Assembly: GCA_029959085.1 (NCBI GenBank)
Contig: JARWIR010000027.1
Coordinates: 9,176,001 to 9,240,000, forward strand
Direction: 5' to 3'
Length of the DNA stretch: 64,000 nt
From: Nemophila menziesii
Lineage: Eukaryota > Streptophyta > Magnoliopsida > Boraginales > Hydrophyllaceae
In this document: positions 1,217 to 53,981 of the stretch, piece by piece
Position numbering within the stretch: position 1 is the stretch's first letter
How the letters are laid out: every line of letters starts with the position of its first letter
Translations under genes and position numbers: made by a program
Notes under the pieces: model-generated
What the model saw: the letters and a program-made list of their open reading frames with translations, nothing else
What the model was told of the DNA's origin: nothing
Databases searched by the model: none

Positions 1217-2648
1217 TGATGTCTCCTCATTTGTGATAGATTTATATTAGGATGAGACATCATTTTTAGTGTTTTAGAAGTCATTATAGTCGTTTTTCTT
1301 GAGAAATGCTACACTTTCCTATTTTGAGTCTTGATTTAGTAAAATAATATTTTTAGAGCATATTGGGTTTAATTATTTATTTAGTGTGAAGCTTTAAAGA
1401 TAATTATGGAGATTAATTAGATTCCAAGTCAAAGACTACAAGATATGGAAAGAGATAGACATGGTAATTGGAGATAAGGAAATAAAAGCTAAAAACATGG
1501 AAAAGGAAAACCTGCCTTAATCCTGAATTTCTGCACCTACGACCACAAATCAGCTTATATCTCAAGAACGGTGAGGAATTTGGAGAAACGGTCAAGAGCA
1601 AAGTCGAAGAGCTTTCCGAGACGATCAATTTGGTGTACTCATACGCGTCAAACGGATGAGTATTGAAGCTGTTAGAGCCAAAAGAAAAACGGGCCTGATT
1701 TCATGTTTTTAGGGTTACGAATTTGAGTTGGGCTTGGAGTCCACCACTTACTTCTCCTTCAAGAAAACGAATTAGGGCTTCCAAGACACCTATAAATACA
1801 CCCTTATACCATTGTAAACATGTCCTTGCTCAATTGCAAAGTATAGCATTAGTCTTTACTTATATTTTCTTAGTTTTAAACAATAGCTTAGTCCTTTAGT
1901 TAAATATTCATCCTTAGAATCAAGCTATTCATCCAAGAAGCAAGTTGACCTATAGAAGAAGACAAGAAGAAGAAGATTGGAGACTGACAACCCCTCTTCT
2001 ACATCTCACCTTCTCTATATTTAGAGTAATTAGCTATAGATCTATTCTCAACCATATTTCTAAGCTTTTATTCTGTAAGTTTACTTTTAATTGTTGGATT
2101 ATTATTTTGTCTTTAATTACTATTTGTTTATTCTAATTGGTTAAGTGTGGCGTATATTGTATTATGTGTTTTGACCTATTTCCTAGATCTGATCAATCTT
2201 AGGATTATTCTTAGTTATTGACACACCACATAATCGTCTAGTGTGACTAGATAGCCACTAAGGTTTGTTGCAATCCTGGTTAATATATAATGCTTAATGT
2301 GACAGGTTAGAATAACAATTTAGTAATAGACGTAGTAATCCTAATCTATTTGACTTACTTTCATATTTAGTTATTTGTTTTGTTTAATTGTTTTATTTAT
2401 TTATTTGCGTTAGATAGTATTTATATTATTTTATCTTTTCATATTCTATTCAAACATCTAAATTCATCTACGCTTGTTAAACATAAATTGATTTAACGGA
2501 TACAATCCCTGCGAACGAACTTGACTTATCATTAAAACTTGCATACGATCTGTGATACTTGCAGTGAGTTCCGTGGTTCTCAAGGGTGTGTGACTCTTTA
2601 TTATTATCTTTATTTATCTATTATTTTATCACACCTTTGCCCCCACCA
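1217..2648 (+). repeat. Element A 5' LTR
   Basis: This 1,432-bp LTR begins TGATGTCTCC and ends CCACCA. A short inverted copy of its start (GAGACATCA) lies at 1254-1262. A TATA-like TATAAATA is at 1791. Near the 3' end it has the CTTGCATACGATCTGTGATA block shared with the LTRs of D, G and L. Positions 1217-2408 are identical to 7787-8978; all differences from the 3' LTR fall in the last 240 bp. Confidence 0.95.
1791..1798 (+). promoter_or_regulatory. Putative TATA box of element A LTR
   Basis: TATAAATA sits about 575 bp into the LTR, followed by a CT-rich stretch. The same position in the 3' LTR is 8361-8368. A TATA-like motif recurs at a comparable place in the other LTRs (for example ATAAAAGG at 11141). 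The transcription start itself cannot be placed from sequence alone. Confidence 0.55.
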
Positions 2649-2654
2649 AGTTTT

Positions 2655-2672
2655 TGGCGCCGCTGCCGGGGA
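2655..2672 (+). other. Primer-binding site of element A (tRNA-Asp type)
   Basis: TGGCGCCGCTGCCGGGGA lies six bases after the LTR. It matches the complement of the plant tRNA-Asp 3' end with one difference. The same PBS occurs in C and, in decayed form, in D, G, K and L. Confidence 0.9.
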
Positions 2673-2777: not shown

Positions 2778-4622
2778 ATGGCAAATTATTACGCACCAAA
2801 TATGTATGGGGCCCGAAGTCAAAATTTGTATCAAGAAGGTTCGAGCTATCAACTGCAAGCTCCACCACAACCCATGCATAATCCACAAGAAGAAGCTATA
2901 ACCAAGCTCGAAGGACTGATGGGTAATTTAGTGAATCTGGTTCAAAATGTTGTGCAGCTCCACAATGAGCAAACTGCAAAAGTGGAGGCCTTGGAGACAC
3001 AAGTCACGCAAGTGACCAATTCTTCTCTAAAATATCAGCAAGAGACTCCACCGTTAATCCGAAGCATCATAGAAGAACAGGTTCGACAAGCATTTCCATC
3101 TCACCGAGTTTTTGAAAGTATAAGTTATCTGGAGAGTATGGAAAAGCAACATGCGGCAAAGATAGATGCTAATACAACCTTAATACGTTCGATGCACCAA
3201 AAATATCAAGCAATGAAGCAAAGATTAACGGACCTCACTACGATCAATCAACAGTTACAACAAGAATTACATAAGAAACTGGGTTATAGCAATGTTGGGT
3301 TCGAAATTTCAACCGTAGAAGAACCAACCAAGCTTAGCTTAGAAGAAGTAATTGTTAAAGATCAAATTACAAAGGAGGTTGAACCAGAATTCAAGTATGT
3401 GGAAGAAGAAAAAGAAACCAATAAAGAAGAGACAGCCGCACAAGAGGTGCAAAAAGAAGGAAGTAAGGTGGAACCACCACCTACACATCCGTTACTATCA
3501 CCACTTCATCTACAAAGAATTACTTATCCTAGTGGTGATACTAAAACTAAAACGTCAAGCCCAGAAGAAATCATTGTTCCTATACTCGACGTCCCATACA
3601 TGCAAACTGGCCTAGGTAAACAAATTGATGATGATGCCATTGAAATCGATAGCGATGTTTGGTTCGATGTTGTTGAAGAGTTCAGCCTTCAAGAAGAGGA
3701 GGAAGTGGAATCATCACAAGTTCCACTTAATGAGCTAGAAGAACAAAGCACGATATGCATAGAGGACGTAATCGCATATAAAGAGCCTACACCACCGATA
3801 GTCTGCAAGGAAGATCTGTCTAAAAAGAGTAAAAGTGTAGAAGTGGAGACCGAGAATAGGGACCGTGCTAAAGAAAGCCTGACAACCATCCCAAAGAAGC
3901 TACCACAAAAGATGCAAGAATTTGGAGCTTTATATCTCCAAATTAATATAGGTGGTAATTTCAAAACTAAAGCGATGTGTGACTTGGGCTCAGGAAGGAA
4001 TATCATGCCCAAGAGTTTGTTCGAGAAGTTAGGCATGGGAGATGCCAAAAGAAAAGATATTGATTTGCTGCTCCTAGATAATTCAACGATAAAGCCATGG
4101 GGAGTCATTGAAGACGTGCTTGTCCAAGTAGGTACTTTAACTATACCTACAGATTTTGTTATCCTTGATAGCATTGCAGGTCAACATGTTCCATTGATAC
4201 TTGGACGCCCATTCTTGGCGACAAGTCACAGTATAATTGATATGCATAGGGGAACCGTGACTTTCCAAGTGGGAAAAGAATCTAAAACATTCCACTTGGT
4301 GGATGAAAAGCATGAGGAATCACGTATAGAAGCCCCGACACTCCGAGTTGTGACAAAAGAAATTAGAAAGAAAGTCCACATTCAACCCGTGAAAAAGAGA
4401 ATCAAAAGTGAGTTTGGGGTTGGTGACATGGTTGCATGGAAAGCCCCCAAACAAGAGAATAGACCACGGGGATTCAAGGATTCGTGGATGGGTCCGTTTG
4501 TGGTTACGAGAGTTATTTCGTCAAAACGGATTGAGATACAAGCTAAGAAGGGTCACAAACTTCGGATAGTAGATGAGCATGACCTAACCCGTTATTGGGG
4601 AGGTTATGTACGCAAGCCTTAA
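2778..4622 (+). CDS. Element A polyprotein: gag linker, aspartic protease and integrase C-terminal tail
   Basis: An intact 614-codon frame. The first ~60 residues are rich in Q, P and Y and resemble the part of gag downstream of the zinc knuckle; no capsid domain or zinc knuckle is present. Residues about 45-175 look coiled-coil and 175-390 are acidic. A retropepsin-like domain spans about 385-510, with active site DLGSG (D402) and ILGRPF near 475. The last ~75 residues contain DSWMGPFVVTRV and end in YWGGYVRKP, matching the GPY/F-type integrase C-terminus seen in K at 41560-41730. RT, RNase H and integrase core are missing. The ATG at 2778 is about 105 bp after the PBS. The stop is followed directly by the conserved stem-loop box. 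The open frame suggests recent selection or recent insertion. Confidence 0.85.
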   Translation: MANYYAPNMYGARSQNLYQEGSSYQLQAPPQPMHNPQEEAITKLEGLMGNLVNLVQNVVQLHNEQTAKVEALETQVTQVTNSSLKYQQETPPLIRSIIEEQVRQAFPSHRVFESISYLESMEKQHAAKIDANTTLIRSMHQKYQAMKQRLTDLTTINQQLQQELHKKLGYSNVGFEISTVEEPTKLSLEEVIVKDQITKEVEPEFKYVEEEKETNKEETAAQEVQKEGSKVEPPPTHPLLSPLHLQRITYPSGDTKTKTSSPEEIIVPILDVPYMQTGLGKQIDDDAIEIDSDVWFDVVEEFSLQEEEEVESSQVPLNELEEQSTICIEDVIAYKEPTPPIVCKEDLSKKSKSVEVETENRDRAKESLTTIPKKLPQKMQEFGALYLQINIGGNFKTKAMCDLGSGRNIMPKSLFEKLGMGDAKRKDIDLLLLDNSTIKPWGVIEDVLVQVGTLTIPTDFVILDSIAGQHVPLILGRPFLATSHSIIDMHRGTVTFQVGKESKTFHLVDEKHEESRIEAPTLRVVTKEIRKKVHIQPVKKRIKSEFGVGDMVAWKAPKQENRPRGFKDSWMGPFVVTRVISSKRIEIQAKKGHKLRIVDEHDLTRYWGGYVRKP

Positions 4623-4624: not shown

Positions 4625-4693
4625 GAGGTAACACGTCTAACTTTGAAAGACGTTAAACAAAAGTGCTGTACGGGAGACAACCCGTAGTTTTTT
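4625..4693 (+). other. Post-ORF stem-loops of element A
   Basis: The first stem is CGTCT, a nine-base loop, then AGACG; TTAAACAAAAG follows. A second perfect hairpin, TACGGG-AGACAA-CCCGTA, is at 4669-4686. The same box follows the integrase-tail ORF in C, D, K, L and O. A role in RNA processing, packaging or stability is inference. Confidence 0.75.
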
Positions 4694-4949
4694 TTTAATA
4701 TTCATGTCTTTTACGTTTTTAATTTAGGTTTAATCTAGTTGTTCTTAGTTGATATTGCATATTTGAGAAAGGTATTAGTGTTTTTGATGCTTAGGTATTG
4801 GAGAAATCGAGTTAGGGAGGCGAACAAAATTTTTTCGAACGGAGAAACTTCGGAAAGCCATATCTTTGCGCTCGGATGTCGGAATCAGGTGATTTTTGAG
4901 CCTAAACTGCATAACTTTTCGAGATCTAGCTGATGGGGAGGTTTTTGCC

Positions 4950-7770: not shown

Positions 7771-7786
7771 TTTGAGTTGGGGGTCT
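7771..7786 (+). other. 3' polypurine tract of element A
   Basis: TTTGAGTTGGGGGTCT abuts the 3' LTR, as expected for the primer of plus-strand DNA synthesis. The identical 16 bases precede the 3' LTRs of B (9289-9304) and C (18001-18016). Confidence 0.8.
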
Positions 7787-9209
7787 TGATGTCTCCTCAT
7801 TTGTGATAGATTTATATTAGGATGAGACATCATTTTTAGTGTTTTAGAAGTCATTATAGTCGTTTTTCTTGAGAAATGCTACACTTTCCTATTTTGAGTC
7901 TTGATTTAGTAAAATAATATTTTTAGAGCATATTGGGTTTAATTATTTATTTAGTGTGAAGCTTTAAAGATAATTATGGAGATTAATTAGATTCCAAGTC
8001 AAAGACTACAAGATATGGAAAGAGATAGACATGGTAATTGGAGATAAGGAAATAAAAGCTAAAAACATGGAAAAGGAAAACCTGCCTTAATCCTGAATTT
8101 CTGCACCTACGACCACAAATCAGCTTATATCTCAAGAACGGTGAGGAATTTGGAGAAACGGTCAAGAGCAAAGTCGAAGAGCTTTCCGAGACGATCAATT
8201 TGGTGTACTCATACGCGTCAAACGGATGAGTATTGAAGCTGTTAGAGCCAAAAGAAAAACGGGCCTGATTTCATGTTTTTAGGGTTACGAATTTGAGTTG
8301 GGCTTGGAGTCCACCACTTACTTCTCCTTCAAGAAAACGAATTAGGGCTTCCAAGACACCTATAAATACACCCTTATACCATTGTAAACATGTCCTTGCT
8401 CAATTGCAAAGTATAGCATTAGTCTTTACTTATATTTTCTTAGTTTTAAACAATAGCTTAGTCCTTTAGTTAAATATTCATCCTTAGAATCAAGCTATTC
8501 ATCCAAGAAGCAAGTTGACCTATAGAAGAAGACAAGAAGAAGAAGATTGGAGACTGACAACCCCTCTTCTACATCTCACCTTCTCTATATTTAGAGTAAT
8601 TAGCTATAGATCTATTCTCAACCATATTTCTAAGCTTTTATTCTGTAAGTTTACTTTTAATTGTTGGATTATTATTTTGTCTTTAATTACTATTTGTTTA
8701 TTCTAATTGGTTAAGTGTGGCGTATATTGTATTATGTGTTTTGACCTATTTCCTAGATCTGATCAATCTTAGGATTATTCTTAGTTATTGACACACCACA
8801 TAATCGTCTAGTGTGACTAGATAGCCACTAAGGTTTGTTGCAATCCTGGTTAATATATAATGCTTAATGTGACAGGTTAGAATAACAATTTAGTAATAGA
8901 CGTAGTAATCCTAATCTATTTGACTTACTTTCATATTTAGTTATTTGTTTTGTTTAATTGTTTTATTTATTTATTTGCATTAGATAGTTATTTATCTTTT
9001 CATATTTTATCCAAACATCTAAATTCATCTACGCTTGTTAAACATAAATAGATCTAACGGATACAATCCCTGCGAACGAACTTGACTTATCATTAAAACT
9101 TGCATACGATCTGTGATACTTGCAGTGAGTTCCGTGGTTATCAAGGGTGTGTGACTCTTTATTATTATCTTTATTTATCTATTATTTTATCACACCTTTG
9201 CCCCCACCA
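7787..9209 (+). repeat. Element A 3' LTR
   Basis: A 1,423-bp LTR, identical to the 5' LTR over its first 1,192 bp. It then shows a ~9-bp length difference and several substitutions in the last 240 bp. It is followed by the TSD GGAAT. Confidence 0.95.
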
Positions 9210-10600: not shown

Positions 10601-12152
10601 TGATGTCTCCTTAATTGTTCTTATTTTCAACCCTTAGGATACATCATTTTCGATGTTTAATTGAATATTTTGATAGACTTTTGAGTTAAAAATGCAATAA
10701 TCCGGAATTACTATTTTATTTCTAGTATTTTTGATTTATTAAACTTTTGCGCGTAATCTTGTGTATTTTAGTGAAAAGTTTGTAGGTTTTGAATATTAGC
10801 TAGGAATGGAATCCGAGAGAAGAGTCAAAGATCACGAGATAGAGTCAAGACTTAAAGATAAATCCCGAAAGAGTTGTTTTTAGAGCTGCAAATCTATTTT
10901 CCACGCCAAATATTTCTGATTTCGAGGTGCTTAAGAGCTGATTTAGCCGCTGACCTTTAAAGAGAAAACATTCCTTATCGAGTTACGGAAATTTAGCAAC
11001 TGATTTCAGGTCAATCGGAGTTGTAACGAAGCGGAAAAATCCGTTTTAGTGAAGGTGTATCAGCAGTTACGGGATTTTGGGCTTGGACATTTAATTAGTG
11101 CTTTATTATTAGGTCCAAGCCCTAATCCGTTTTTCTACTTATAAAAGGAGGCCTTGACTTCTATTTTTCAGAGAATTCATTCTTTACAATTAAAAACATC
11201 AGAGAGAAGCAACAGAAGGAAGAAAGAAGAAGTTGCAAGAGCTGGAGAGGGTCTATATATATCCGTTCTCAGTCATTCCTATTCCGGAAATTAGGTTTCT
11301 TTTATCTTTTATTTGTAAGACAATATGAATTCCTTTACTTTTAATTTAGTTTTTCTTTTTATTAGTATGAGCTAATTTCATTTTAGCGCTTGAGAATGCT
11401 ATATGGGTAATTCCCAAATCTTATTGAATTTCATATGTTGAATTTGGGTTTTTGTTAAATTAAATTAGATTGTGTCTTTTACCCTTTTCGATAAATTGTG
11501 AATGTTTACTGTTTTTAGCGTCATGAACTAGGAACAGGTATTAGTATCTAGGCTATTCCAATTAGTGGCAATTGGATCATCCTGACGGAGGGTTTAGATA
11601 CAGAACCATTTATTCAATCTAGGATAGAAGCTATTGATTCTGACGAACTTAGCTAATTCTAGGGCCAATGAGGTAATAAAACTTAAACATCCAAAAGTGG
11701 ATCATATTTACCCTGACGGGACTAGTGACACTCTAGGATCGCCTTATAGTCCACTTTGACGGGGGTATGAGGAATTTAGAATCCCGACCATTGTAATTGA
11801 CAAATTTAACCCTTAAACAGCATAGGTTATGAAATAGGATTAGGAAGATCCCTTGCGTTCTCAAGTGCTACTTCTCGTACTCCGTTTTACATCATTTTAC
11901 TTGCGTCTTAGCTTTTATTTACATTTTAATAATTATCTTTCATTTACTTAGCATTAATACAAAAACCAATCAAACATATTTTCTTTACTTGTTTTCATAA
12001 GTGCAACCATTCATTACTTGTTAAACATTGTAGTCAACCATCTCATCATTGGAACGAATCTGTTTTATCAACTATTACTTGGGACAACCGTACACTTGCG
12101 GTTGTGGTTCGATTATTTATTGCATATTTTTAGAACACACAAAGGACCACCA
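10601..12152 (+). repeat. Element C 5' LTR
   Basis: 1,552 bp. A near-inverted copy of the start (GGATACATCA) is at 10637-10646 and a TATA-like ATAAAAGG at 11141. Four TGACG motifs in similar contexts occur at 11583, 11641, 11714 and 11757. The end carries GGGACAACCGTACACTTGCG, shared with the B, E, F, I and K LTRs. The 3' LTR has a short extra block near 18500 (GGGCTTAGAATTT). Confidence 0.93.
11141..11148 (+). promoter_or_regulatory. Putative TATA box of element C LTR
   Basis: ATAAAAGG lies about 540 bp into the LTR, matching 18571-18578 in the 3' LTR. Its position corresponds to the TATA-like motif of A's LTR. Confidence 0.5.
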
Positions 12153-12158
12153 AGTTTT

Positions 12159-12176
12159 TGGCGCCGCTGCCGGGGA
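12159..12176 (+). other. Primer-binding site of element C (tRNA-Asp type)
   Basis: TGGCGCCGCTGCCGGGGA, identical to the PBS of A and six bases after the LTR. Confidence 0.9.
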
Positions 12177-12418
12177 CGGTAGCGTGTGACTACGGTGTTT
12201 ATCCTTTAGTGATAGTTGCATTTATTTTTATTTCAGTTTTACGCTTTTTGTTTGTTCATTTCTTTTCAGGTTTTTAGGTTTGGTGTATGCGAAGAAGACT
12301 CTTTAAGGATCTAGAGCCATCACATTCGATCCTTAATAATCCAGAATCATTAATCAGACTTGCTAACAAGAGAAGGAAAGAATAAGAAGCCTTAGAAGTA
12401 GAAGAATTAATTAACAGA

Positions 12419-14122
12419 ATGGAGAACATTAATATTCAGAATCAACAAAACAATAACGGACAAGCTCAGAGAGTGATTAATCAAGATCCGTGGTTTGTTA
12501 ATGGTCCACCAGAAGTTCCATTCCGTGCTCCTGCTCTAGGAGTAGGTGCTCCAAATATAGATGTTCCGAGGTTTCGTCCAGATTCGGGTATGTTAGCTCT
12601 ATTCCAAAATTTTGGAAATTTTCGCGGTAAAGCTGGAGAAGATCCTCTTAGAGCGGTACAGAAATTCAAACAGATATGTGATTCTTACATCACACAAGGG
12701 GTTTCAAGAGAACATATGTATTATGTTGTGTTTCGATTTTTCATTGTTGATGGAGCGAGTGAATGGCACGATACACAAGATCCTACGAAGATAACAAATT
12801 GGGAACAATTAGAAACTGCTTTCTTTGACAGATATTACCCAAGTAACATGAGGTTAGATGATCAACGTGAATTAACGCATTTCCGTCAAGAATATGATGA
12901 AACTTTGGGTAAAAGATGGACAAGATTTCAGATGTGTTTACGTAGAGTTCCCGATCATGGCCTTTCAGAACAACAACAGCTGAAAATCTTTTACAGAGGC
13001 CTTGATGGGACTTCAAGAGAAAAATTGGATTTGCTTTGTGGTGCTGGATTTCTTCAAGTTCAACTCGTTCATGCAAAAATCATCTTGGAAAGAACAGTAA
13101 AGAATGAAGTTGGGTGGAATACCGTAAGAACACCAGTTAGAGGAGGAATTAATAATGTCAATATTGAAGAAAAGTTCAACTCCTTAGAGACCAAGATTCA
13201 AACCATACTAGAACAACAATTGAGACAACTCACTTTAGCCGTGAAAGAAGGTTTTTCGAATAAAAGAGGTGAGGTAAAGGTTGCACAAGAGGTGTATGGA
13301 TGTGAGTATTGCGGTGTTAATGATCATAGTTGGGAGAATTGTCAGAATAATCAAGAATCTGTGATGTTTGTCTCCAACAGAGGTAACTTTAATTCGAGTG
13401 GTAATGGATATCAGCCTAACAGAAACCATCCTGGGTTTCAATACTCAAATCCTAATGGGGCAGCCAATCCTACATATGCGTATCAGCCACATCTCCAAGG
13501 TAACAACTACAATCCAAGACCACACAACAATTATCAAGGAGGACAGAACCAAAATTATGTTCAGAGACAAGCTCCTCAAGATAGTAATTATGAAACCATG
13601 AACCAAAAAGCCTTACCTGCCCATCCGCAAGAAGGTGTAGTTACCCTGCAGAAAACCATAGAAAGTTTGATTGCTCTTCAGACACAAGCTATGGAACGTC
13701 AACAAGCATCTGATGCAAACATGAAGTTATTACAGAATCAGATAAATCAAATTAATAAACAACTGAATCAACGTCCACAAGGGCAACTCCCTAGCGATAC
13801 TGAGAATCCAATTCAAATTGAAGATTGTAAAGCTATTACTCTCAGAAGTGATAAGAACCTTCCTCCACCTCCTTTTCCGGTTATGAAAGAAAAAGAAATT
13901 AGAAAAGAAAAGGATAAGGTTAGTAAAGAGAAAGAAGTGCTAGTTGAAGAAGTGGAGGGGTCCATTGAGATTCCAAAAAAGAAAAATGATATTATAATCA
14001 ATCGTCAACCTCCACCATTTCCATCGCGAGTTCAAAAGAAGGGTGATTTGGCTGATTACCGAAAATTCTTTAACAAGGTAAGAGGTCTTAGCGTAAATAT
14101 TCCGTTGCTAGAAGCTATTTGA
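12419..14122 (+). CDS. gag: Element C gag polyprotein
   Basis: A 567-codon frame encoding the structural protein of the particle. Residues ~30-60 have the Athila-like RAPALGVGAPN region. The capsid-type retrotransposon gag domain spans about 65-210 (EWHD, FFDRYYP, FRQEYDETL, WTRFQMCLRRVPDHG). A single zinc knuckle, CEYCGVNDHSWENC (CX2CX4HX4C), lies near 300. An N- and Q-rich linker follows, then the gag-protease junction (LPSDTENP, ITLRSDKNLPPPPFP). The same frame extends upstream to an ATG at 12287 but is cut by a TAA at 12383-12385; related N-termini suggest 12287 was the original start. The frame ends in a TGA at 14120-14122, after which homology continues in the same frame into the protease. 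Confidence 0.9.
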   Translation: MENINIQNQQNNNGQAQRVINQDPWFVNGPPEVPFRAPALGVGAPNIDVPRFRPDSGMLALFQNFGNFRGKAGEDPLRAVQKFKQICDSYITQGVSREHMYYVVFRFFIVDGASEWHDTQDPTKITNWEQLETAFFDRYYPSNMRLDDQRELTHFRQEYDETLGKRWTRFQMCLRRVPDHGLSEQQQLKIFYRGLDGTSREKLDLLCGAGFLQVQLVHAKIILERTVKNEVGWNTVRTPVRGGINNVNIEEKFNSLETKIQTILEQQLRQLTLAVKEGFSNKRGEVKVAQEVYGCEYCGVNDHSWENCQNNQESVMFVSNRGNFNSSGNGYQPNRNHPGFQYSNPNGAANPTYAYQPHLQGNNYNPRPHNNYQGGQNQNYVQRQAPQDSNYETMNQKALPAHPQEGVVTLQKTIESLIALQTQAMERQQASDANMKLLQNQINQINKQLNQRPQGQLPSDTENPIQIEDCKAITLRSDKNLPPPPFPVMKEKEIRKEKDKVSKEKEVLVEEVEGSIEIPKKKNDIIINRQPPPFPSRVQKKGDLADYRKFFNKVRGLSVNIPLLEAI

Positions 14123-14902
14123 GATGTACCCAAGTATGCTAAGTTTCTGAAAAGAGCCCTCACTAACAAAAGGCCGTATTGTGATAATGAGATGATTGGT
14201 CTTCCTGAAGAATGTAGTGCCATTTGTCAAAGTAAGTTACCTCCAAAGTTAGTTGATCCTGGGAGTTTCACAATTCCGATCTCGATTGGAGAAGAATGGA
14301 AAAGTAAGGCACTATGTGATTTGGGTGCAAGCATCAATCTTATGCCCAAATCGATCTTTGATAAGCTTAATATTGAAGCAAGACCCACTTCTATGGTCTT
14401 GCAAATGGCGGATCGATCTCTTGCACATCCAGAAGGCCGAATAGAAGATGTCCTCGTTAAGGCAGGTACGTTAATTTTTCCCGCTGATTTCGTTATACTT
14501 GATTACGACGCGGATAGGAATGTCCCCATCATTTTGGGAAGACCATTCCTAGCCACGGGGGGTAACTTGATTGATGTAGAAAACGGAGAAATAATCATGA
14601 GAATCCAAGACGAGGAAGTTAAATTCAACGTGTTCAGACCAATGAAATTCCCAGATGCACAGGAGTATTGCTTTCGCGTAGATGTTGTTGAACAGGTACC
14701 AAAAGAGCCAAATGAGGTTGTGGAAACCTTAGGAATGGAGGAAAAAGAGCTAAGAAAAAAACCACCGATCAAAGTTCCTCCAAATCCTAAGAGAAATCCA
14801 CCACTAAATCATGCGAAAAAGAAAGATAAAGCACGTGCCACGAAGGTTCCGAAAGAACCTAAGAAAGAAAGAAAGAAAGAAAAAGGGGTTCAAAGTAGGT
14901 AA
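14123..14902 (+). CDS. Element C aspartic protease
   Basis: In the same frame as gag, separated from it only by the TGA at 14120. It opens with the junction DVPKYAKFLKRAL. The usable ATG is 14192, 236 codons long. Retropepsin features include CDLGASINLMPKS (D43 of that frame), VLQMADRS and IILGRPFLAT. The domain would process gag after assembly. A lysine-rich tail ends at 14902, where a frameshift in a run of AAAG units breaks the link to the integrase tail at 14883-15092. Confidence 0.85.
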   Translation, partial: DVPKYAKFLKRALTNKRPYCDNEMIGLPEECSAICQSKLPPKLVDPGSFTIPISIGEEWKSKALCDLGASINLMPKSIFDKLNIEARPTSMVLQMADRSLAHPEGRIEDVLVKAGTLIFPADFVILDYDADRNVPIILGRPFLATGGNLIDVENGEIIMRIQDEEVKFNVFRPMKFPDAQEYCFRVDVVEQVPKEPNEVVETLGMEEKELRKKPPIKVPPNPKRNPPLNHAKKKDKARATKVPKEPKKERKKEKGVQSR

Positions 14903-15092
14903 AGAAGTAGCTATGAAGAAACCAAATCCTCCTCCAAAGGTACGTGAATCGAAAAGTTCTTGGCTAGGACCATTCATGGTCACGAAGGTTATCTCAGATA
15001 AACTAGTGGGCATAAAAGCTAAGGGATGCAAATTTCGAGTTGCAAATATTGACAACCTCACTCATTGCTGGGGAGGTTATGTTAATGACTAA
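14883..15092 (+). pseudogene. Element C integrase C-terminal (GPY/F) tail, frameshifted
   Basis: Read one frame over from the protease: GFKVGKEVAMKKP, then SSWLGPFMVTKV, then CWGGYVND and a stop. It matches the end of the integrase in K (WSGPYIVTKV) and the tails of A, L and O. In A the equivalent segment is continuous with the protease, so here the frameshift is a later lesion. An open frame runs from 14811 in this register. The integrase zinc-binding and catalytic domains are absent. Confidence 0.8.
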
Positions 15093-15098
15093 AGAACG

Positions 15099-15135
15099 AG
15101 GTAACCCGTCGAGCTTAACGACGTTAAACAAAAGC
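15099..15135 (+). other. Post-ORF stem-loop of element C
   Basis: CGTCG-AGCTTAA-CGACG, followed by TTAAACAAAAG, just after the stop. Compared with A and L (CGTCT...AGACG), the closing pair has changed on both sides. Confidence 0.75.
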
Positions 15136-15309
15136 CATTTCTTGTATAATAGTTTAAGTTTTTATTTTTCGTAGTTTAAATTCGTTTGATTTTCGTTAAT
15201 TTAATGTTTATTAGTAAGAAATGAGGAAGGGTAGTTGTTTTTGATGATTTCAGGGGTAAAAAGGTCATGAGTTTGGGGTCGAAAGGGCGAAAATAGAGAA
15301 AAAATTTGT

Positions 15310-15830
15310 GGTGTTCCAGGGGCAAACCGGGTACCCGCATTTGCAAATGCGGGTACCCAGTTTCGAAAGCTAAAAATTCCAACTTTCTGACCCAGCGTCT
15401 TGGGTCCCGCGTTTTGCTGCGTCACCACTGCGTTTTGCTGCGTTTTGATTCGCGCCATCGACGCAAACCGGGTTCCCGCATTCGCAAATGCGGGTACCCG
15501 GTTTCGGAGCTGTACTTTTCCAAATTCTCTGACCCGACGTCTTGGGAGGTTGCGTCTTGGTGCGTCTTGGCTCGCGCCATCGACGAAAAACCGGGTACCC
15601 GCATTTGCAAATGCGGGAACCCGGTTTCGAAGTGCATTTCTTTGACCCAGCGTCTTGGGTCCAGCGTTTTGAGGTATATTAAAAAAAAATTATTATTGCG
15701 TCAATTATTGCATCAGACGCCAAAAAAAATTATTATTATTTTTTCGCGCCGACACAGCGACGCGAAACTGGGGCCCCGCATTTGCAAATTTGGGTACCCG
15801 GTTTCTTCTGTGACAGGGCCGTTTTAAGCT
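15310..15830 (+). repeat. Palindrome array of element C
   Basis: Four spaced palindromes built on CCGGGTACCCGCATTTGCAA and its complement. A perfect 30-bp palindrome spans 15329-15358. Near-perfect 40-bp versions are at 15465-15504 and 15588-15627, and a decayed one at 15765-15804. Between them are GC-rich blocks such as GACCCAGCGTCTTGGGTCC and TTCGCGCCATCGACG. Open frames crossing this array are by-products of the repeat. Confidence 0.9.
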
Positions 15831-16187
15831 TTTTAACCCTAGATTTTTACCTCTTTCTTCAAACCAGCTTCCAAAAAACGCTTCCAAAACCCAGAATTTC
15901 CCGAAGATCATCATCTACAACCACACAATCATCGAATCCTACCCTCTTTCACCACAATAACATACACTCAATTCATCTCCTATCCAAAGCACCATGGAAT
16001 TCCCACTTTTCTCCAATTGTTCTTCATCCAAGCTTTAAATTAAATCCAATTCCCTCTTCCCCCACATCAATTAGCCTTTACCCATCTCATATTCCACCAT
16101 AATCTTCAAGTCTTAAGCCTCAAAACATCAAAGTTCTAAGCCTTAGCTTCTCACTATTTGAAGTTTTGAGTTTGGGGTGGAAAGAGA
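15831..16187 (+). other. Element C spacer before ORF2 remnant
   Basis: A C-, A- and T-rich untranslated-looking stretch equivalent to 5311-5740 in A. It ends with the first internal purine tract, TTTTGAGTTTGGGGTGG (16164-16180). No domain is visible. Confidence 0.5.
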
Positions 16188-16551
16188 TGCTTATCCGAAC
16201 CGTTTTCATGTGTACTTATCGAAGGAATTCTCCAAGAAATAGAAACACTTTTGGTACTGTTCAAGGACAAGCTATTGAGATTCTTAATTCACGTTGCAAA
16301 CACAAGACCGAAGAGGTTAAAATTAAAGCTAATCCTAAGAAGAGGAAATTGATTGATGAACCTGAAAGTGTGGAAGAAAATGATTCGATGATGAGTTGGA
16401 ATAGAAAATTAAAGTGTTGAAAAAAAAATCGGATGCGCTGATTGGTATTTTGGGAAACGTTACAAACGAGCTGAACTTTATCCGTTCAAACTACAACTTA
16501 CGCGAGATAAGGTTCATGGACGCAAAACCAGCAACCAGCCTCGCGCTGGTT
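16188..16551 (+). pseudogene. Short ORF2 remnant of element C
   Basis: An ATG at 16188, just after the purine tract, opens 77 codons to 16420. The product is basic (KKRKLIDEP) and unlike known domains. Homology of position then runs to the hairpin AACCAGC-CTCGC-GCTGGTT at 16533-16551, which ends ORF2 in I and K. The domain seen in K and L is not recognisable here. Confidence 0.4.
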
Positions 16552-16612
16552 AAGATACGTTTTCTATCCCTTCTGATTTAGTGTAGATTATTTTATTGCT
16601 TTGAGTCTTTTC

Positions 16613-16653
16613 GAGTCGTGGGGACACGACTCATTTTTGAGTTTGGGGTGGGG
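16613..16653 (+). other. Conserved hairpin plus internal purine tract, element C
   Basis: GAGTCGTGGGGACACGACTC (16613-16632) is identical to that in A. It is followed by TTTTTGAGTTTGGGGTGGGG at 16634-16653. Confidence 0.75.
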
Positions 16654-18016
16654 TTCGCCGCCTCATCCCAGTTTTTATGTGTTATATGTTTTATTTGCTT
16701 TCAATAAATTAATTGTCGGAGTTGCGTTTGACTGTAGAAGATTTTAAATGTCCCTTTAAGCATACTTTTGATGAATTAATGATAGTAAATAGTGGACCTT
16801 AGGGATTGATATAAAACGCACTTAGAATTGCATGCGAACATTGGTAATTGATAGGAAAAATTAATGAACAATGCAAATGAAGTAAGCTTGTACTTAAGGA
16901 ATATGTTTGGTGTGTAGAACGTGAAATCTTAATTAGTAGAGAACCCACCTAGATATGAACTAAAGACAAGCTATGTACTTAGGAAAATGATAGGGGCAGT
17001 TCTTTGTTAGCCATTTGAAGCCTTTTAGCTTGCTATCCCTTATTATAATTTTATCCGTCTTAGCCCAATTTTGAGCCTTAAGCCTTTTCTTTTGTAGCCA
17101 CGATATGAGCCCATTATCCTTTAGATTATTAGGCATTACCAAATGACCCGCACTTGAATCACAATCCTGAGACTAGTCTCGAGCTTGAGTTTGGGGTGGT
17201 GGGACCATATTTGGGAAGATACATTGGGAAGGGATTATAGGTGTTTGTATTGAGGCACAAAAATGTAGATGATATTATTATTTGTAACCCTTTGCCGGGA
17301 TTTGAAAAGAAAAAAAGAGAAAAAGAAAAAAAATATTATAAGAGACATGACCTTTCACATCAAAACGAGGGTCATGGGTATCTTGTAAAAAAAAAGAAAA
17401 AACAAATGAAAAAAAGAAAATAAAAAGAAAGAAAGAATAAAATAAACCGACAAAGTGGAATATTTTTGGAAATCATCTTAGTTTTTATTGGGTGGACATG
17501 GGGACGCAACATTGGTGCGTCAAATGGGTGAGTGAGAACATTTTTTAGCGTAAACTCAAGCTCGAGGACTTTGTTGATGGTAAGTGAGGAGAGAGCCAAA
17601 ATCTCACTTCAAATTCACCAAATATACATCCACACCGTCCTTAAGCCATTATTAAACCATAAAGACCTCTCGATTCTTAAGTACATAGTGAATTTATGAT
17701 TCTGTTGATAGGAAATATACTAGGTGGAGCGTTCAAAGCGATTTAGGATTGAGGAACAACCTATAGCCAACATAAAGATATAAGTACAAGTGTAATCTTC
17801 AAGCATTGCTAATTTAATTTTATGATTGAGATTATTTATATTCGATGTTGCATGATAAGTATATGTATATATTAGTTCCAAGAGTTTGTCTATATGAGAT
17901 TTGTCTTAAGAATTGCTTTAGGTGTATTTGCTAGCTTCTACTTGTTTATACGCTTACTTCTACCCCTTTGTTTTGTTTTGCTTTGTCGGGACGACAAAGG
18001 TTTGAGTTGGGGGTCT
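16654..18016 (+). other. Element C 3' noncoding region and polypurine tract
   Basis: It contains the third purine tract (GAGCTTGAGTTTGGGGTGG, 17181-17199), a CCCTTTGCCGGGAT box near 17287, an A-rich stretch at 17300-17440, and the GTGAGGAGAGAGCC box near 17585-17598. The terminal tract TTTGAGTTGGGGGTCT is at 18001-18016. It matches B and A box by box. No coding sequence is supported. Confidence 0.75.
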
Positions 18017-19582
18017 TGATGTCTCCTTAATTGTTCTTATTTTCGACCCTTAGGATACATCATTTTCGATGTTTAATTGAATATTTTGATAGACTTTTGA
18101 GTTAAAAATGCAATAATCCGGAATTCCTATTTTATTTCTAGTATATTTGACTTATTAAACTTTTGCGCGTAATCTTGTGTATTTTAGTGAAAAGTTTGTA
18201 GGTTTTGAATATTAGCTAGGAATGGAATCCGAGAGAAGAGTCAAAGATCACGAGATAGAGTCAAGACTTAAAGATAAATCCCGAAAGAGTTGTTTTTAGA
18301 GCTGCAAATCTGTTTTCCAGGCCAAAGATTGCTGATTTCGAGGTGCTTAAGAGATGATTTAGCCGCTGACCTTTGAAGAGAAAACATTCCTTATCGAGTT
18401 ACGGAAATCTAGCAACTGATTTTCAGGTCAATCGGAGTTGTAACGAAGCAGGAAAAGCCGTTTTAGTGAAGGTGTATCAGCAGTTACGGGATTTTGGGCT
18501 TAGAATTTGGGCTTGGACATTTAATTAGTGTTTTATTATTAGGTCCAAGCCCTAATCCGTTTTTCTACTTATAAAAGGAGGCATTGACTTCTATTTTTCA
18601 GAGAATTCATTATTTACAATTAAAAACATCAGAGAGAAGCAACAGAAGGAAGAAAGAAGAAGCTGCAAGAGCTGGAGAGGGTCTATATCTCCGTTTTCAG
18701 TCATTCCTATTCCGTAAATTAGGTTTCTTTTATCTTTTATTTGTAAGACAATATGAATTCCTTTACTTTTAATTTAGTTTTTCTTTTTATTAGTATGAGC
18801 TAATTTCATTTTAGCGCTTGAGAATGCTATATGGGTAATTCCCAAATCTTATTGAATTTCGTATGTTGAATTTGGGTTTCTGTTAAATTAAATTAGATTG
18901 TGTCTTTTACCCTTTTCGATAAATTGTGAATGTTTACTGTTTTTAGCGTCATGAACTAGGAACAGGTATTAGTATCTAGGCTATTCCAATTAGTGGCAAT
19001 TGGATCATCTTGACAGAGGGTTTAGATACAGAACCATTTATTCAATCTAGGATAGAAGCTATTGATTCTGACGAACTTAGCTAATTCTAGGGCCAATGAG
19101 GTAATAAAACTTAAACATCCAAAAGTGGATCATATTTACCCTGACGGGACTAGTGACACTCTAGGATCGCCTTATAGTCCACCCTGACGGGAGTATGAGG
19201 AATTTAGAATCCCGACCATTGTAATTGACCAATTTAACCCTTAAACAACATAGGTTATGAAATAGGATTAGGAAGATCCCTTGCGTTCTCAAGTGCTACT
19301 TCTCATACTGCGTTTTACATCATTTTACTTGCGTCTTAGCTTTTATTTACATTTTAATAATTATCTTTCATTTACTTAGCATTAATACAAAAACAAATCA
19401 AACATATTTTCTTTACTTGTTTTCATAAGTGCAACCATTCATTACTTGTTAAACATTGTAGTCAACCATCTCGTCCTTGGAACGAATCTGTTTTATCAAC
19501 TATATTACTTGGGACAACCGTACACTTGCGGTTGTGGTTCGATTATTTATTGCATATTTTTAGAACACACAAAGGACCACCA
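18017..19582 (+). repeat. Element C 3' LTR
   Basis: A 1,566-bp partner of 10601-12152 with only scattered substitutions and a short insertion near 18500. It is followed by the TSD CGTCT. Confidence 0.93.
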
Positions 19583-41559: not shown

Positions 41560-42921
41560 CACCTCAGGATGTGGATCTTCCATATGATTTATATCATCGC
41601 CTCCATGGTATATCTTCAATCGATGCCCATTCACCATGAAGGTGTGGTGTTCGAATGGATGCTCAATCTCTATAGCTCCATGAGGCGTAACTTTGGTCAC
41701 AATATAAGGACCAGACCATTTTGATCTCAACTTCCCAAGATAATCACTGACTTGGAGTTATATTTAAGGACCATTTGTCCAACTTTAAATCTGTTCTCCC
41801 CAATGCGATTATCATGCCATTTTTTTGTCTTTTCTTTGTAAAGTTTAGCATTCTCATAGAGATGATATCGAATCTCATCAAGTTCATTCAGTTTTATCAT
41901 ACGATTCTCATCGGCTAAAGTCGGATCTAAGTTCAACTATGCTTTCGCCCAATATGCACCTAATTCAAGTTCAAGATCTAAGTGACAAGCCTTACCATAA
42001 ACCATGCGATAAGGAGATGCACCAACAAGCGTCTTGTACACAGTATCATTTAACTTCATTGACCAATCTTTACATGTTGGTCCAACAATCTTCTCTAGAA
42101 CAAATTTGATCTCTCGATTAGAGACCTCAACTTGACCGTTTGCTTGTCGATGATAAGTAGTAGATACACGATGTCTCATCCCATACTTCTCTAATACCTC
42201 CTTCAAGTAATTATTCACAATATTCGCACCTCCATCATTGATAATAACTATAGGCGTACCATGTCTTGTGAATATGTGTGATTTCAAGAACTATATCACC
42301 ACTCGCGAATCATTCGTAGGTAGAGCTACAACCTTTACCCATTTTGACATGTAATCAACAACTAGTAGGATGTATTGATTTCCATTGGATAATACAAAAG
42401 GACTCATGAAGTCAATACCACATAAATCAAATATCTCAACTTCAAGAACATTATTACGTGGCATCTCATCTCTCTTCAATATATTACATGTATATTGGAA
42501 TCTATGACATTCCTTGACATATGCATGACAATCTTTATGTAAAGTAGGCTAATAAAAACCAGATTTGAAGTACTTTTGCAATGGTACGATCACCTTTGAA
42601 ATGCCCTCCATATGGTGAATCATGAAAACTTGCAACTACTACATGGACTTCGCATTCAGGTATGCATCTTTTCACCATTTGATCAGTACATGTTTTATAG
42701 AAGAAAGGATCCTCCCAAAAGAACTGCTTTGAACAGTGAACTAATCTCTTCCTCTCTTGTGAGTTAGACCCTTCAGGAAAGGATCCACTCACAATAAGAT
42801 TCGATATATCTGCATACCAAGGAGTACCAATTGCATGTATCGAAAATAAACTCTCATCATGAAACTCCTCCTTAACCAACACTGGTCCACTATTAACCTT
42901 AGAACCTTCAAGACGCGACAA
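41560..42921 (-). pseudogene. Element K integrase, degenerate
   Basis: Coding order: an N-terminal zinc-binding region with FHDSPYGGHFKGDRTIAKVL and [12 protein letters not shown] (the second cysteine of the usual CxxC pair reads Phe), [20 protein letters not shown] with the first catalytic Asp (42291-42479), [12 protein letters not shown] with the second Asp and [13 protein letters not shown] with the catalytic Glu (41937-42287), then FKVGQMVL and WSGPYIVTKV, the GPY/F C-terminal domain ending YHGGDD (41560-41730). Stops and at least one frameshift break the frame. This C-terminal domain is the match for the tails in A, C, D, L and O. Confidence 0.85.
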
Positions 42922-44200
42922 ATGATCTGCTACCTGATTTTCAATCCCCTTTCTATCTCAAATCTCTAAGTTAAACTCTTGCAACAACAATACCCATATA
43001 ATCAAACACGACCTTGAATCTTTCCTTTCCATAAGGTATTTGATTGCAGATTGATCTGTGTATACAACAATTTTCACCCCAAGAAGATAGGAATGAAATT
43101 TATCAAAAGTGTACACAACAGCTAATAGTTCCTTCTCAGTTACTGTATAATTAATCTGAGCACTTGTGAAGGTCTTACTTGCATAGTAAATGGAATGAAA
43201 TACCTTATCTTTTCTCTGACCAACACAACACCCATAGCAAGATCACTAGCATCACACATAAATTCAAATGGAATGTTCCAATCGGGAGGGACTACAATCG
43301 CTGCAGATATGAGTTTCTCCTTTATCTCCAAGAATGATGCTATGCAAGCTTTATCAAAAAAGAATTTGGTGTCCTTCTCAAGTAAGTTACATAACTTCTT
43401 GACAATCTTAGATAAATCTTTGATGAAACGAAGATAGAACCTAGCATGACCCAAGAAACATCTCACTCCTTACACATAAACAGGAGGTGGAAGAGTCTTG
43501 ATCACCTCAATATTTGCACGATCAGCCTCCAGACTTGCACTTGAAACCTTAAGCCTCAACACTATTCCCTCACGAACGATGAAGTGACATTTCTCCCAAT
43601 TTAAAACCAAATCAGCTTCCTTGCATCAACTTAACACCTTTTCTAGATTATGCAAACAATCATCAAAGTTATACCAAAAACAGAAAAGTCATCCATAAAT
43701 ACCTCAAGGAATCCATCAATCATGTCTCAGAATATTGTCGTCATAAACCTCTGAAAAGTAGCAGGTGCGTTACACAATCCAAATGGCATCCTTCGATAGA
43801 CAAAGGTACCAATAGGGCATGTAAAAGTCATTTTGTGTTGATCTGAGGGGTCTACACATATCTGATTGTACCCTGAATACCCATCTAGGAAGCAATAGTA
43901 CTCTCTTCTGGCTAGCTTATCCAACATCTGATCTATGAATGGAAGAGGAAAATGATCTTTTATGGTGGCCTTGTTCAATTTACGATAATCTATACACACT
44001 CTCTCCAACCAACATCGATTCTTTAGGGTATGGCTTCATCTGATCATTCAGGATAGTAGTGATACCTCCCTTATTTGGCACGCATTGAACTGGACTCACC
44101 CTTTCGCTACTAGCTATAGGAAAGATGTTCCGCACATCTAATAACTTGATTACTTCTTTCCTGTGCACCTCCTTCATTACTGGCATCAATCTTCTTTGAC
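42922..44200 (-). pseudogene. Element K reverse transcriptase and RNase H, degenerate
   Basis: RT motifs: YRKLNKATIKDHFPLPF, FLDGYSGYNQI, FVYRRMPFGLCNAPATFQ (43727-44008) and catalytic FMDD at 43688-43699, a form seen in Athila-type elements. The connection and RNase H regions follow, with MRCFLGHARFYLRFI and FEFMCDASD (first RNase H Asp) at 43140-43466. Several stops interrupt it. It is the only RT in the window. Confidence 0.85.
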
Positions 44201-44639
44201 CTTAAACTGACCTTCAAATTGTAGGACTAAACCATTGATGTCAGCAATAGTCTATCCAATTGCTTCTTTATTTGCTCGTAGCACACGCAACAGTTTATCT
44301 TCTTAAGTACCTGTTAAAGTAGCTGAAACAATAACATGTAAAGTATTATTAGTACCCAAATAAGCATACCTCAAGTGTGACGGAAGCGACTTCTCCTCTA
44401 ATTGCAGAGGAGACTCAATTGATGGTTTTTTTGAGGTTCAATCTTCTCTAATTCTCTCACTGGCTCATAGGCAAGACACCTAGGCTTTGTATTCTCAGAA
44501 TTTAGAGATTCCATTGTTTTGGCAAGCTCTTTCATCATCTCTGGTAAGTCAAGTGTTAGGGTAGCCTACAATATATCATCAAAATTCATATCATAAAATA
44601 CCTCTTGCATAGCTTGATTAATTGCATCAACCCAGAACA

Positions 44640-45290
44640 CTCATCCTTGGAATTTGGAAACTTCATTGCCCTAAACATGTTGAACTTTACCTCCTCGCCT
44701 TGAACACTCATTATCAATTCTCCATTCTATACACCAATAAGAGTACGCCTCATTGCTAGGAATGGTCTTCCCAAAATAATCGGGACATTCCTATCGGCGT
44801 CGTAATCAAGTATGATACAATCACAAAGAAAAATTAAACTACCTGCCTTGACGAGAACATCTTCCACACTTCCCTCTTGATGTGCGAGGGATCTATCAGC
44901 CATTTGCAAGACCATGGTGGTAGGTCTTGCGTTTTCAATCTCCAATTTCTCAAAAACCGATCTAGGCATGAGATTAAAACTCACACCCAAATCACTCAGA
45001 GCTATCTTATGTCACTCCTCACCAATAAAATTTGGAATATTAAAACTCCCAAGATCAACAAATTTAGGTGGCAACTTACTTTGGTATATCGCACTACATT
45101 ATTCTGGTAAACCTACCATTTCATTCTCAAGATATGTGAGTTTGTTGGTGATAGATCTTTTCAAGAATTTTACATACTTTGGCATTCCTCTAACAACATC
45201 TAAAAAGGGAAAATTGATATTAAGCTTACTCGCCATATTCATGAATTTCTGATATTCATTCATATTTCCTTTTTCTATCTCTCGAGGGGA
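44640..45290 (-). pseudogene. Element K protease region, degenerate
   Basis: The minus strand reads SDLGVSFNLMPRSVFEKL, ARPTTMVLQMADRSLAHQEG, SVEDVLVKAG and VPIILGRPFLAM (44727-44990). The active site is DLGVS. The motif order matches C closely (LQMADRSLAH is identical). The junction with gag upstream includes the FxKFM-type linker around 45120-45290. It is broken by stops. Confidence 0.8.
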
Positions 45291-53098: not shown

Positions 53099-53509
53099 AG
53101 CTTTAATTACTCTTGAAATTTAAAACTCTTGATTATAGGTTGAACAAGCTTTATTTGGGTTAGGTAAGGTGTTATGTAGATGAATCTCTATGTGGGCAGG
53201 ATGAATTCGTCTTTTATTGGTATGGATCTAAGAAATTGTAGGGTGGAATTGGAAAATTTAGGCTTTTGATTCTTGGATTCAAAGTGTTTTGATATGATTT
53301 GGGTGGTTGAATCTTATTTATAATGATGTGGGGAAAGGATTAGATGTGTTTTATCGTGATTGGGTAGTGTTTTGATGTTTGGTGAAGGTTCGTTGAAGCT
53401 TTAATGGAGTTGAGAGAGGTTTGGAGAAGAAAGGGGGCTTTAAGGATTGAAAAATTTGGAATAGAACTAACCTCCTCTTCTTTATACCTTAAAAAAACGA
53501 ATTTTTTCT

Positions 53510-53976: not shown

Positions 53977-53981
53977 CTCTA

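What the first reader, a model, noticed from the sequence alone, without database searches (positions are those of the whole stretch)
2778..4622. Protease fused directly to an integrase C-terminal tail, without RT or integrase core, in an intact ORF
Element A encodes 614 codons with DLGSG protease and a WMGPF...WGGY ending. The ending matches the last ~60 residues of integrase in K (WSGPYIVTKV...YHGGDD). The same join occurs in C, L and O. These belong to two groups defined by LTR ends, so either one old deletion was inherited or the design arose more than once. Keeping the integrase tail, and in A keeping it open, suggests the tail has a job, perhaps in packaging, nuclear entry or targeting of the borrowed integrase.
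Basis: partly seen in the sequence, partly recalled or inferred. Interest (0 to 1): 0.85.

Follow-up and report, generated by a model that had tools for sequence, protein, structure and literature searches.

The report
Retrotransposons keeping only integrase's tail
In this plant genome several numerous, young families of jumping DNA have lost the copying and cutting enzymes but kept a protein made of a protease joined to the last piece of the lost cutting enzyme, and natural selection seems to have preserved that piece, which suggests it has a job in helper-dependent jumping.

Summary
[quoted passage not shown] A is a complete insertion (1217-9209, TSD GGAAT; LTRs differ at 8 of 1423 sites). 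It is not a one-off: 72 full-length copies were scored in the same genome, 71 without a stop. Two more families carry the tail behind Gag and protease: C (13 of 150 listed copies open for 934-978 codons) and L (about 42 of 150 open for 939-977). An autonomous Athila family (20 of 150 listed with frames of 1876-1911 codons) has the same LTR tips, PBS and PPT. The tails of A, C and L group together (UFBoot 100), although C otherwise resembles the autonomous family, so C is probably a recombinant. Between families tail amino acids are kept while synonymous sites are near saturation. Similar Gag-protease-CTD proteins are predicted in Cannabis and hop. Best reading: semi-autonomous elements like wheat Sabrina, but with a selected integrase-CTD module, probably for assembly or packaging. 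That function is inferred. New variant of a known kind.

The parts
1217..2648 (+). 5' LTR of element A (TGATGTCTCC...CCACCA)
   Evidence: self-BLAST and inspection of ends; 1415 of 1423 aligned sites identical to the 3' LTR; TSD GGAAT at 1212-1216 and 9210-9214
2655..2672 (+). primer binding site TGGCGCCGCTGCCGGGGA; the stretch CCACCAAGTTTT + PBS is the same in A, C and the one autonomous copy read there
   Evidence: 29 of 30 A copies carry the identical stretch
2778..4622 (+). 614-codon ORF: coiled coil - variable middle - protease - linker - integrase CTD
2883..3278 (+). predicted long helices (residues 36-167); residues 8-79 resemble the Gag region after the zinc knuckle of an L-type element (27993-27727, minus)
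   Evidence: tblastn E=2.8e-6; AF2 helices, pLDDT block means 52-80
3897..4247 (+). retropepsin-like protease (DLGSG), residues about 374-490
   Evidence: w=0.18 among 70 copies
4353..4619 (+). integrase C-terminal tail (GPF motif ... WGGY), residues 526-614
   Evidence: selection
4625..4697 (+). conserved DNA directly after the stop (GAGGTAAC...GACGTTAAACAAAAG, then hairpin ACGGGAGACAACCCGT and T run)
   Evidence: alignment of A, C, L, O, K; the hairpin part is seen in A and O, nearly in L, not in C or K
7771..7786 (+). polypurine tract TTTGAGTTGGGGGTCT before the 3' LTR, same as in C and three autonomous copies
7787..9209 (+). 3' LTR of element A
10601..19582 (+). element C (TSD CGTCT; LTRs 10601-12152 and 18017-19582): Gag 12419-14122, protease 14123-14899, tail 14895-15089 in another frame
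   Evidence: family with open 934-978-codon frames
49027..58421 (-). element L: LTRs 57177-58421 and 49027-50303, Gag pieces 56564-55333, protease-tail ORF 54776-53985
   Evidence: family with open 939-977-codon frames
59580..62148 (+). element O, same design as L: Gag pieces 59580-60835, protease 61358-61705, tail 61684-62148
41599..48080 (-). element K: decayed autonomous Athila-type copy (Gag, protease 45077-44589, integrase core 42290-41940, CTD 41727-41599)

Best explanation
Element A is a semi-autonomous (helper-dependent) LTR retrotransposon of the Athila lineage. It does not make RT, RNase H, integrase or capsid. It uses those of an autonomous Athila family in the same genome, whose LTR tips, PBS and PPT it shares.

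A, C and L each keep an ORF that ends protease - linker - integrase CTD. C, and by frame length L, also keep Gag. A replaced the capsid part of Gag by a long coiled coil.

Shown or strongly supported: the tail is an integrase CTD by descent; it is coded in frame in many young copies of three families; the tails of A, C and L group together; selection has kept it as protein, not as DNA.

Inferred: the tail works as a small binding module during particle assembly. It either holds the element's own RNA (or primer tRNA complex), or holds the helper's Gag-Pol/integrase, so that this genome is loaded into shared particles. In A the coiled coil would attach the product to helper Gag through Gag's own coil region.
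For: Tail homology. 72 scored A copies, 71 stop-free. C and L families with long open frames ending in the tail. Autonomous partner in the genome with the same LTR tip, 3' tip, spacer, PBS and PPT, while LTR bodies are unrelated (A vs partner 650 of 1417).

Tail tree: A+C+L against the other CTDs, UFBoot 100. Forcing C's tail to join the K-type integrases is rejected, AU p=0.00015 with the decayed window L and 8e-6 with an intact L copy. Tail A-L: 45 of 68 aa identical, pS 0.77, pN 0.20. A-C: 33 of 67, pS 0.79, pN 0.34. C-L: 30 of 66, pS 0.73, pN 0.36. A-L linker: only 9 of 46 aa identical.

Within A the high-frequency variants (4 or more of 30 copies) are 0N:7S in the tail against 16N:4S in the non-protease rest, Fisher p=0.0004.

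Comparable Gag-protease-basic linker-CTD proteins in Cannabis and hop. In HIV-1 (other authors' work) integrase CTD basic residues bind viral RNA (PMC7671690, passages), and the CTD is the main contact of integrase with LysRS, an association of GagPol tied to tRNA primer packaging (PMC7589778, abstract).
Against: No experiment. The AF2 tail-only model is useless (pLDDT 46.8). The full-length model has low confidence overall (45.8), with only the last strands of the tail at about 75. The fold of the tail is therefore inferred from homology.

The branch that sets A, C and L apart from the other CTDs is very long (about 1.8-2.0 substitutions per site), so some of the grouping could be shared fast change and not shared descent. 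C's protease with A and L is not rejected (AU p 0.148).

Tail variants in 2-4 A copies are not depleted of amino-acid changes (8N:2S). The A copies studied are the best-scoring by protein and hence biased to intact ones. The C tail counts (0N:14S for variants shared by two or more copies) come from copies picked by their tails and are not independent evidence.

The partner is inferred from shared ends, not shown. That L's long frames hold an intact Gag, and that the partner's 1886-codon frame is one Gag-Pol, is inferred from frame length.
Confidence: 0.5

Rival explanations
1. Targeting or nuclear entry: the tail is kept because it joins the partner's integrase complex and steers it to chromatin or into the nucleus.
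For: The tail derives from the integrase part that in chromoviruses lies next to targeting domains (PMC3059260, passages). The C linker is rich in lysine (last 110 residues net +20). Hop noaCRM elements lack RT, RH and INT but by the legend keep the other three domains, GAG, PRO and the CR chromodomain (PMC12371157, section 19).
Against: Athila elements are reported to lack any targeting domain (same passages). No domain beyond the CTD was found in A's tail. Nothing here tests insertion sites.
Confidence: 0.22
2. Passenger: the tail is a left-over of a deletion that happened to stay in frame and travels with the protease ORF.
For: Singletons (w=0.55, p=0.09) and 2-4-copy variants (8N:2S) in the tail are near neutral among 70 copies. 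Young bursts keep frames open without selection.
Against: Tail amino acids kept between A, L and C with synonymous sites near saturation; frequent variants 1N:7S; the neighbouring linker is not kept (9 of 46 aa); the tail sits behind two different kinds of protease.
Confidence: 0.13
3. Cis element: the DNA or RNA of the tail-coding region, next to the conserved block after the stop, is needed for packaging, splicing or RNA structure, and the protein is incidental.
For: A block directly after the stop is conserved in A, C, L, O and K.
Against: Synonymous sites in the tail are near saturation between families (pS 0.73-0.79) while amino acids are kept, the opposite of a cis element in the tail itself. 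The block lies outside the tail.
Confidence: 0.06
4. Interference: the tail product caps or mis-assembles the partner's integrase, limiting the partner, a parasite's control device.
For: In HIV-1 the CTD is reported to mediate integrase multimerisation (PMC7671690, passages), so a free CTD could compete.
Against: No sign that the autonomous family is suppressed: 20 of 150 listed copies still have frames of 1876-1911 codons. The elements depend on that integrase themselves.
Confidence: 0.09

Closest known systems
RLG_Sabrina_SA and RLG_WHAM of wheat/barley (Athila clade, semi-autonomous GAG-Pro), partner RLG_Wilma/BAGY2
   Same: Athila-clade, Gag plus protease in one ORF, no RT or INT, high copy, same PBS and LTR tips as an autonomous partner with little other similarity (PMC9744471 and PMC5738225, passages).
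   Different: No integrase tail is mentioned in the passages read; A lacks Gag capsid. Whether Sabrina/WHAM ORFs carry an unnoticed tail was not tested here.
RLG_Quinta with RLG_Cereba (wheat centromeric pair)
   Same: Non-autonomous element supplying Gag, partner with same PBS and LTR tips (PMC11302176, passages).
   Different: CRM chromovirus; Quinta has Gag plus a domain of unknown function; no protease-CTD join is mentioned in the passages read.
noaCRM of hop (PMC12371157)
   Same: Lacks RT, RH and INT of six domains, so GAG, PRO and apparently the chromodomain at the integrase end remain (section 19 with its legend).
   Different: Chromovirus; what is kept is the chromodomain, not stated to be the integrase CTD; no selection analysis in the section read.
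Athila-type integrase C-terminal domain (GPY/F; retroviral SH3-like CTD)
   Same: The tail is homologous.
   Different: Without N-terminal and catalytic domains; several positions changed (SW.GPF, LT..WGGY) in A, C and L together.
Predicted Gag-protease-CTD proteins of Cannabis (P0169 and kin) and hop (P0156, P0166, P0205)
   Same: Protease, lysine-rich linker, then CTD starting at the same F.VG point as in C.
   Different: Tails form their own group; common origin with A/C/L neither supported nor excluded (AU p 0.34). Database gene models; exon structure unknown.

Membership tests
Athila lineage of Ty3/Gypsy LTR retrotransposons | LTRs with TG...CA ends, 5-bp TSD, tRNA-Asp-type PBS, PPT | tested here: met
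   A: TSD GGAAT, TG...CA, PBS TGGCGCCGCTGCCGGGGA, PPT. That the PBS is of tRNA-Asp type follows what PMC9744471 says of its Athila-clade families (passage); it was not matched to a tRNA here
Athila lineage of Ty3/Gypsy LTR retrotransposons | RT/RH/IN phylogenetic placement | not testable with these tools
   A has none of these domains. The name Athila for K and its family rests on resemblance recalled and on the barley/wheat papers, not on an RT tree made here
semi-autonomous Gag-Pro elements (Sabrina_SA type) | intact Gag-protease ORF, no RT or INT | tested here: inconclusive
   C: frame open over all 565 codons held in 4 of 20 fetched loci and 934-978 codons long in 13 of 150 rows. L by frame length. 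A itself fails: no capsid or zinc knuckle
semi-autonomous Gag-Pro elements (Sabrina_SA type) | LTR tips and PBS identical to an autonomous partner | tested here: met
   (partner PBS seen in 1 copy, PPT and LTR start in 3 others)
semi-autonomous Gag-Pro elements (Sabrina_SA type) | matching activity periods and co-expression with the partner | not tested
   would need LTR dating of many copies of each family and expression data
integrase | HHCC zinc finger and DDE catalytic core | tested here: not met
   no such Pfam match in the A ORF at E<=10; only the CTD is present
integrase CTD (GPY/F module) | sequence homology to the CTD of true integrases | tested here: met
integrase CTD (GPY/F module) | SH3-like fold | tested here: inconclusive
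   AF2 models of low confidence; no fold search was run
TR-GAG (Gag-only non-autonomous elements) | Gag as the only coding part | tested here: not met
   A has protease and CTD and no capsid. Definition recalled; only a search listing seen

The most novel reading that the evidence does not exclude
Across flowering plants, Athila-type elements that give up RT, RNase H and the integrase core keep the integrase CTD behind Gag and protease, because the CTD is a separable loading module (for genome RNA, primer or helper Pol) needed in every particle. Non-autonomous elements would thus be a natural gene-trimming experiment showing a non-catalytic role of plant integrase like that known for HIV-1. 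The module can pass between element families by recombination.
Probability: 0.35. Interest if true: 0.8.

Novelty: new variant of a known kind. Interest (0 to 1): 0.6.

Why it matters
Helper-dependent Gag-protease elements are among the most abundant sequences of large plant genomes such as wheat and barley, and how they are mobilised is inferred mainly from shared ends. A conserved integrase CTD in such elements gives a handle on what they must bring themselves. It would also extend to plants the idea that integrase has a structural, non-catalytic role. The C family suggests that this module is reshuffled between element families.

Tried and rejected
Rejected: chance open frame (71 of 72 scored copies stop-free); one-off deletion; tail resemblance by chance (1000 shuffles); C's tail as a simple left-over of a K-type integrase (AU p 0.00015 and 8e-6).

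Led nowhere: database search with the tail alone (9 candidates, none at E<=10); Pfam on A's tail and on K's tail; AF2 of the tail alone; constraint test placing C's protease with A and L (not rejected, AU p 0.148; C's protease groups with K at UFBoot 99); test whether Cannabis/hop tails share the origin of A/C/L (undecided); genome-wide counts by short pattern (no answer). No fold search was run, because both models were poor. One search stopped because minus-strand loci were not turned (redone). One search stopped after its tail results; its protease part was redone.

Bias known: A copies were taken best-first by protein score (30 whole; 70 of the 72; left out were the near-tandem neighbour of a fetched copy and the last copy of the list). 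C copies were picked by tail score, so C's tail counts are biased. Database proteins with an integrase-CTD match: P0127, P0130, P0132, P0134, P0139, P0141, P0187 and P0237 were set aside as possible gene-model splices; P0047, P0112, P0126, P0203, P0215, P0010, P0015 and P0038 as partial or weak; P0032, P0072 and P0120 are the integrase-bearing comparison set. Kept in the tree as protease-CTD proteins: P0012, P0156, P0166, P0205, P0169, P0188, P0124, P0230, P0152, P0155, P0209 and P0240; of these P0188 and P0240 lack the DLG motif that I searched for.

Full report
1. The object. The ORF 2778-4622 encodes 614 residues. It lies in a complete LTR element at 1217-9209: LTRs 1217-2648 and 7787-9209, 1415 of 1423 aligned sites identical, TSD GGAAT, PBS TGGCGCCGCTGCCGGGGA, PPT TTTGAGTTGGGGGTCT. 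At 1.3e-8 substitutions per site and year (rate as quoted in PMC9744471, passage) 8 differences in 1423 mean about 0.2 million years. The protein is: helices at residues 36-167 (model of low overall confidence), whose start (8-79) resembles the part of Gag after the zinc knuckle; a variable middle; a retropepsin-like protease, about 374-490; a linker; and the tail, 526-614. There is no Gag capsid domain, no CCHC motif, and no RT, RNase H or integrase-core match.

2. The tail. It matches the C-terminal domain of Athila-type integrases: 37.7 bits at best against four database CTDs (three from integrase-bearing proteins, one from P0012) and two pieces of window K, with at most 29.3 bits in 1000 shuffles and 22.7 bits in other parts of the A protein; 42.7 bits to an open-frame integrase of the same genome; hhalign probability 96.4. 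A direct search of the protein database with the tail alone found nothing, and Pfam has no match, so the homology rests on these direct comparisons.

3. The genome. 72 A-type matches were scored over the full 614 residues, 71 of them without a stop; only the best of 46708 first-look candidates were scored, so this is a lower bound. In 29 of 30 copies the stretch CCACCAAGTTTT + PBS is identical.

4. Two more families. A search with C's tail listed 150 copies, 13 of them in frames of 934-978 codons (counted by eye). In four of 20 fetched loci (L050, L053, L057, L058) the frame is open over all of the 565 codons held; the one translation printed (L058) runs from the Gag part after the zinc knuckle through protease and a lysine-rich linker to the tail. 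A search with L's tail listed 150 copies, about 42 in frames of 939-977 codons (counted by eye); two of these were read over protease and tail (L108, L109). The window's own C, L and O are decayed copies.

5. The partner. A search with the integrase core of K listed 150 matches, 20 of them in frames of 1876-1911 codons (counted by eye), long enough for Gag-Pol in one ORF (one ORF inferred from length). One copy was read at its 5' LTR end and PBS, three others at PPT and 3' LTR start. LTR tip TGATGTCTCCT, 3' tip CCACCA, spacer AGTTTT, PBS and the PPT TTTGAGTTGGGGGTCT agree with A and C. LTR bodies: C against partner 1306 of 1543 (85%), A against partner 650 of 1417, A against C 661 of 1384. This is the pattern by which Sabrina/WHAM were assigned to Wilma in wheat (PMC9744471, passages).

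6. History. In the tail tree A, C and L stand together against the other CTDs (K-type integrases, P0032, P0072, P0120 and P0012; UFBoot 100), on a very long branch (about 1.8-2.0). Putting C's tail with the K-type integrases is rejected (AU p 0.00015 with the decayed window L, 8e-6 with intact L). In the protease tree C goes with K (UFBoot 99) and A with L (99), but putting C's protease with A and L is not rejected (AU p 0.148). C's DNA is K-like up to 14656 (72%) and again from 15192 (84%, against the autonomous copy L044). The tail at 14895-15089 lies between. The simplest account is that an A/L-type tail was recombined into a K-like backbone. A and L share 81% identity over 6198-8405 in the 3' region, which also fits exchange between families.

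7. Selection. Thirty whole A ORFs, variants in 4 or more copies: protease 5N:10S, tail 0N:7S, everything else 16N:4S (Fisher tail against the rest p=0.0004). In the same call the tail's 2-3-copy variants are 3N:1S and its singletons 13N:6S. Seventy copies, protease to tail, variants in 2 or more copies: protease 12N:23S (w=0.18, p=5e-7), linker 8N:0S, tail 9N:9S (w=0.34, p=0.02); in 5 or more: tail 1N:7S (w=0.05, p=0.0004); but 2-4 copies: tail 8N:2S (w=1.35) and singletons 18N:11S (w=0.55, p=0.09). New insertions are expected to drift, so the frequent, older variants are the informative ones. The sample is biased to intact copies; the contrast between parts of the same copies is not affected by that in an obvious way. 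Between families: tail A-L 45 of 68 aa, pS 0.77, pN 0.20; A-C 33 of 67, pS 0.79, pN 0.34; C-L 30 of 66, pS 0.73, pN 0.36; protease A-L 61 of 122, pS 0.61, pN 0.33; linker A-L 9 of 46. Synonymous sites near saturation with conserved amino acids mean selection on protein, and argue against a cis element in the tail.

8. Other plants. The last database search (query: the C protein of L058, 565 residues) gave 5928 proteins, 120 listed. With the first search, 240 proteins were scanned with integrase-tail and new-tail profiles. Protease-CTD proteins without RT or integrase core between them were seen in Cannabis (P0169, a cluster of 41 sequences; P0188, P0124, P0230) and hop (P0156, P0166, P0205), with a lysine-rich linker and the CTD starting at the same F.VG point as in C; in Ulmus (P0152, P0155, P0209, P0240) a stretch resembling the start of RT (judged by eye) stands between; in Prunus P0012. 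Ten proteins were scanned with Pfam, seven of these and three set aside: only Gag and/or protease matched, and P0188 and P0240 matched Gag alone; P0012, scanned earlier, matched the protease and, weakly, an integrase SH3 domain (E=0.028). These are gene models; splicing artefacts cannot be excluded. Whether these arose separately from A/C/L is undecided (AU p 0.34).

9. Mechanism. Shown: homology, copy numbers, shared ends, grouping of the tails, conservation as protein. Inferred: use of the partner's enzymes; a binding role of the tail in assembly or packaging; the role of A's coiled coil in riding on partner Gag. Support by analogy: HIV-1 integrase CTD binds viral RNA in virions (PMC7671690, passages) and is the main contact of integrase with LysRS, tied to primer packaging (PMC7589778, abstract).

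10. Known or new. Semi-autonomous Gag-Pro elements of the Athila clade are known (PMC9744471, PMC5738225; passages). Hop noaCRM elements lack RT, RH and INT but apparently keep the chromodomain (PMC12371157, section 19). In ten searches of the held open-access library no listed title or abstract start names a Gag-protease-integrase-CTD or protease-integrase-CTD element; some lists were cut (20 of 26, 15 of 20, 8 of 36), two searches returned nothing, most subscription journals are not in that library, and apart from listings only the named passages, one abstract and one section were read. Hence: new variant of a known kind.

Noticed in passing
window 4625-4697 and the matching places in C, L, O, K: A DNA block directly after the tail or integrase stop (GAGGTAAC...GACGTTAAACAAAAG) is conserved in all five elements, in A and O followed by a hairpin ACGGG-AGACAA-CCCGT and a T run.
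   Followed up: partly
L044 949-2284: A 445-codon ORF downstream of the autonomous Gag-Pol, at the place of the third (env-like) ORF of Athila elements; name recalled, no profile run.
   Followed up: no
L043 97-1049 and L044 2692-3648: In one autonomous copy about 950 bases in front of the LTR are duplicated at both ends (99.6% over 2310 bases with the LTR part), a tandem or recombined arrangement.
   Followed up: no
window 4983-5238: GC-rich near-tandem repeats (CCACGGGGT...CCACGGGTTTT) in the non-coding part of A after the ORF.
   Followed up: no
window 9258-9329: PPT-like sequence followed by an LTR-like start TTGATATCTCCC, the end of another element family right after A's 3' LTR.
   Followed up: no
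database protein P0160: A protein labelled Salmonella enterica is 41% identical to the plant Gag-protease of C; plant contamination in a public record is likely.
   Followed up: no
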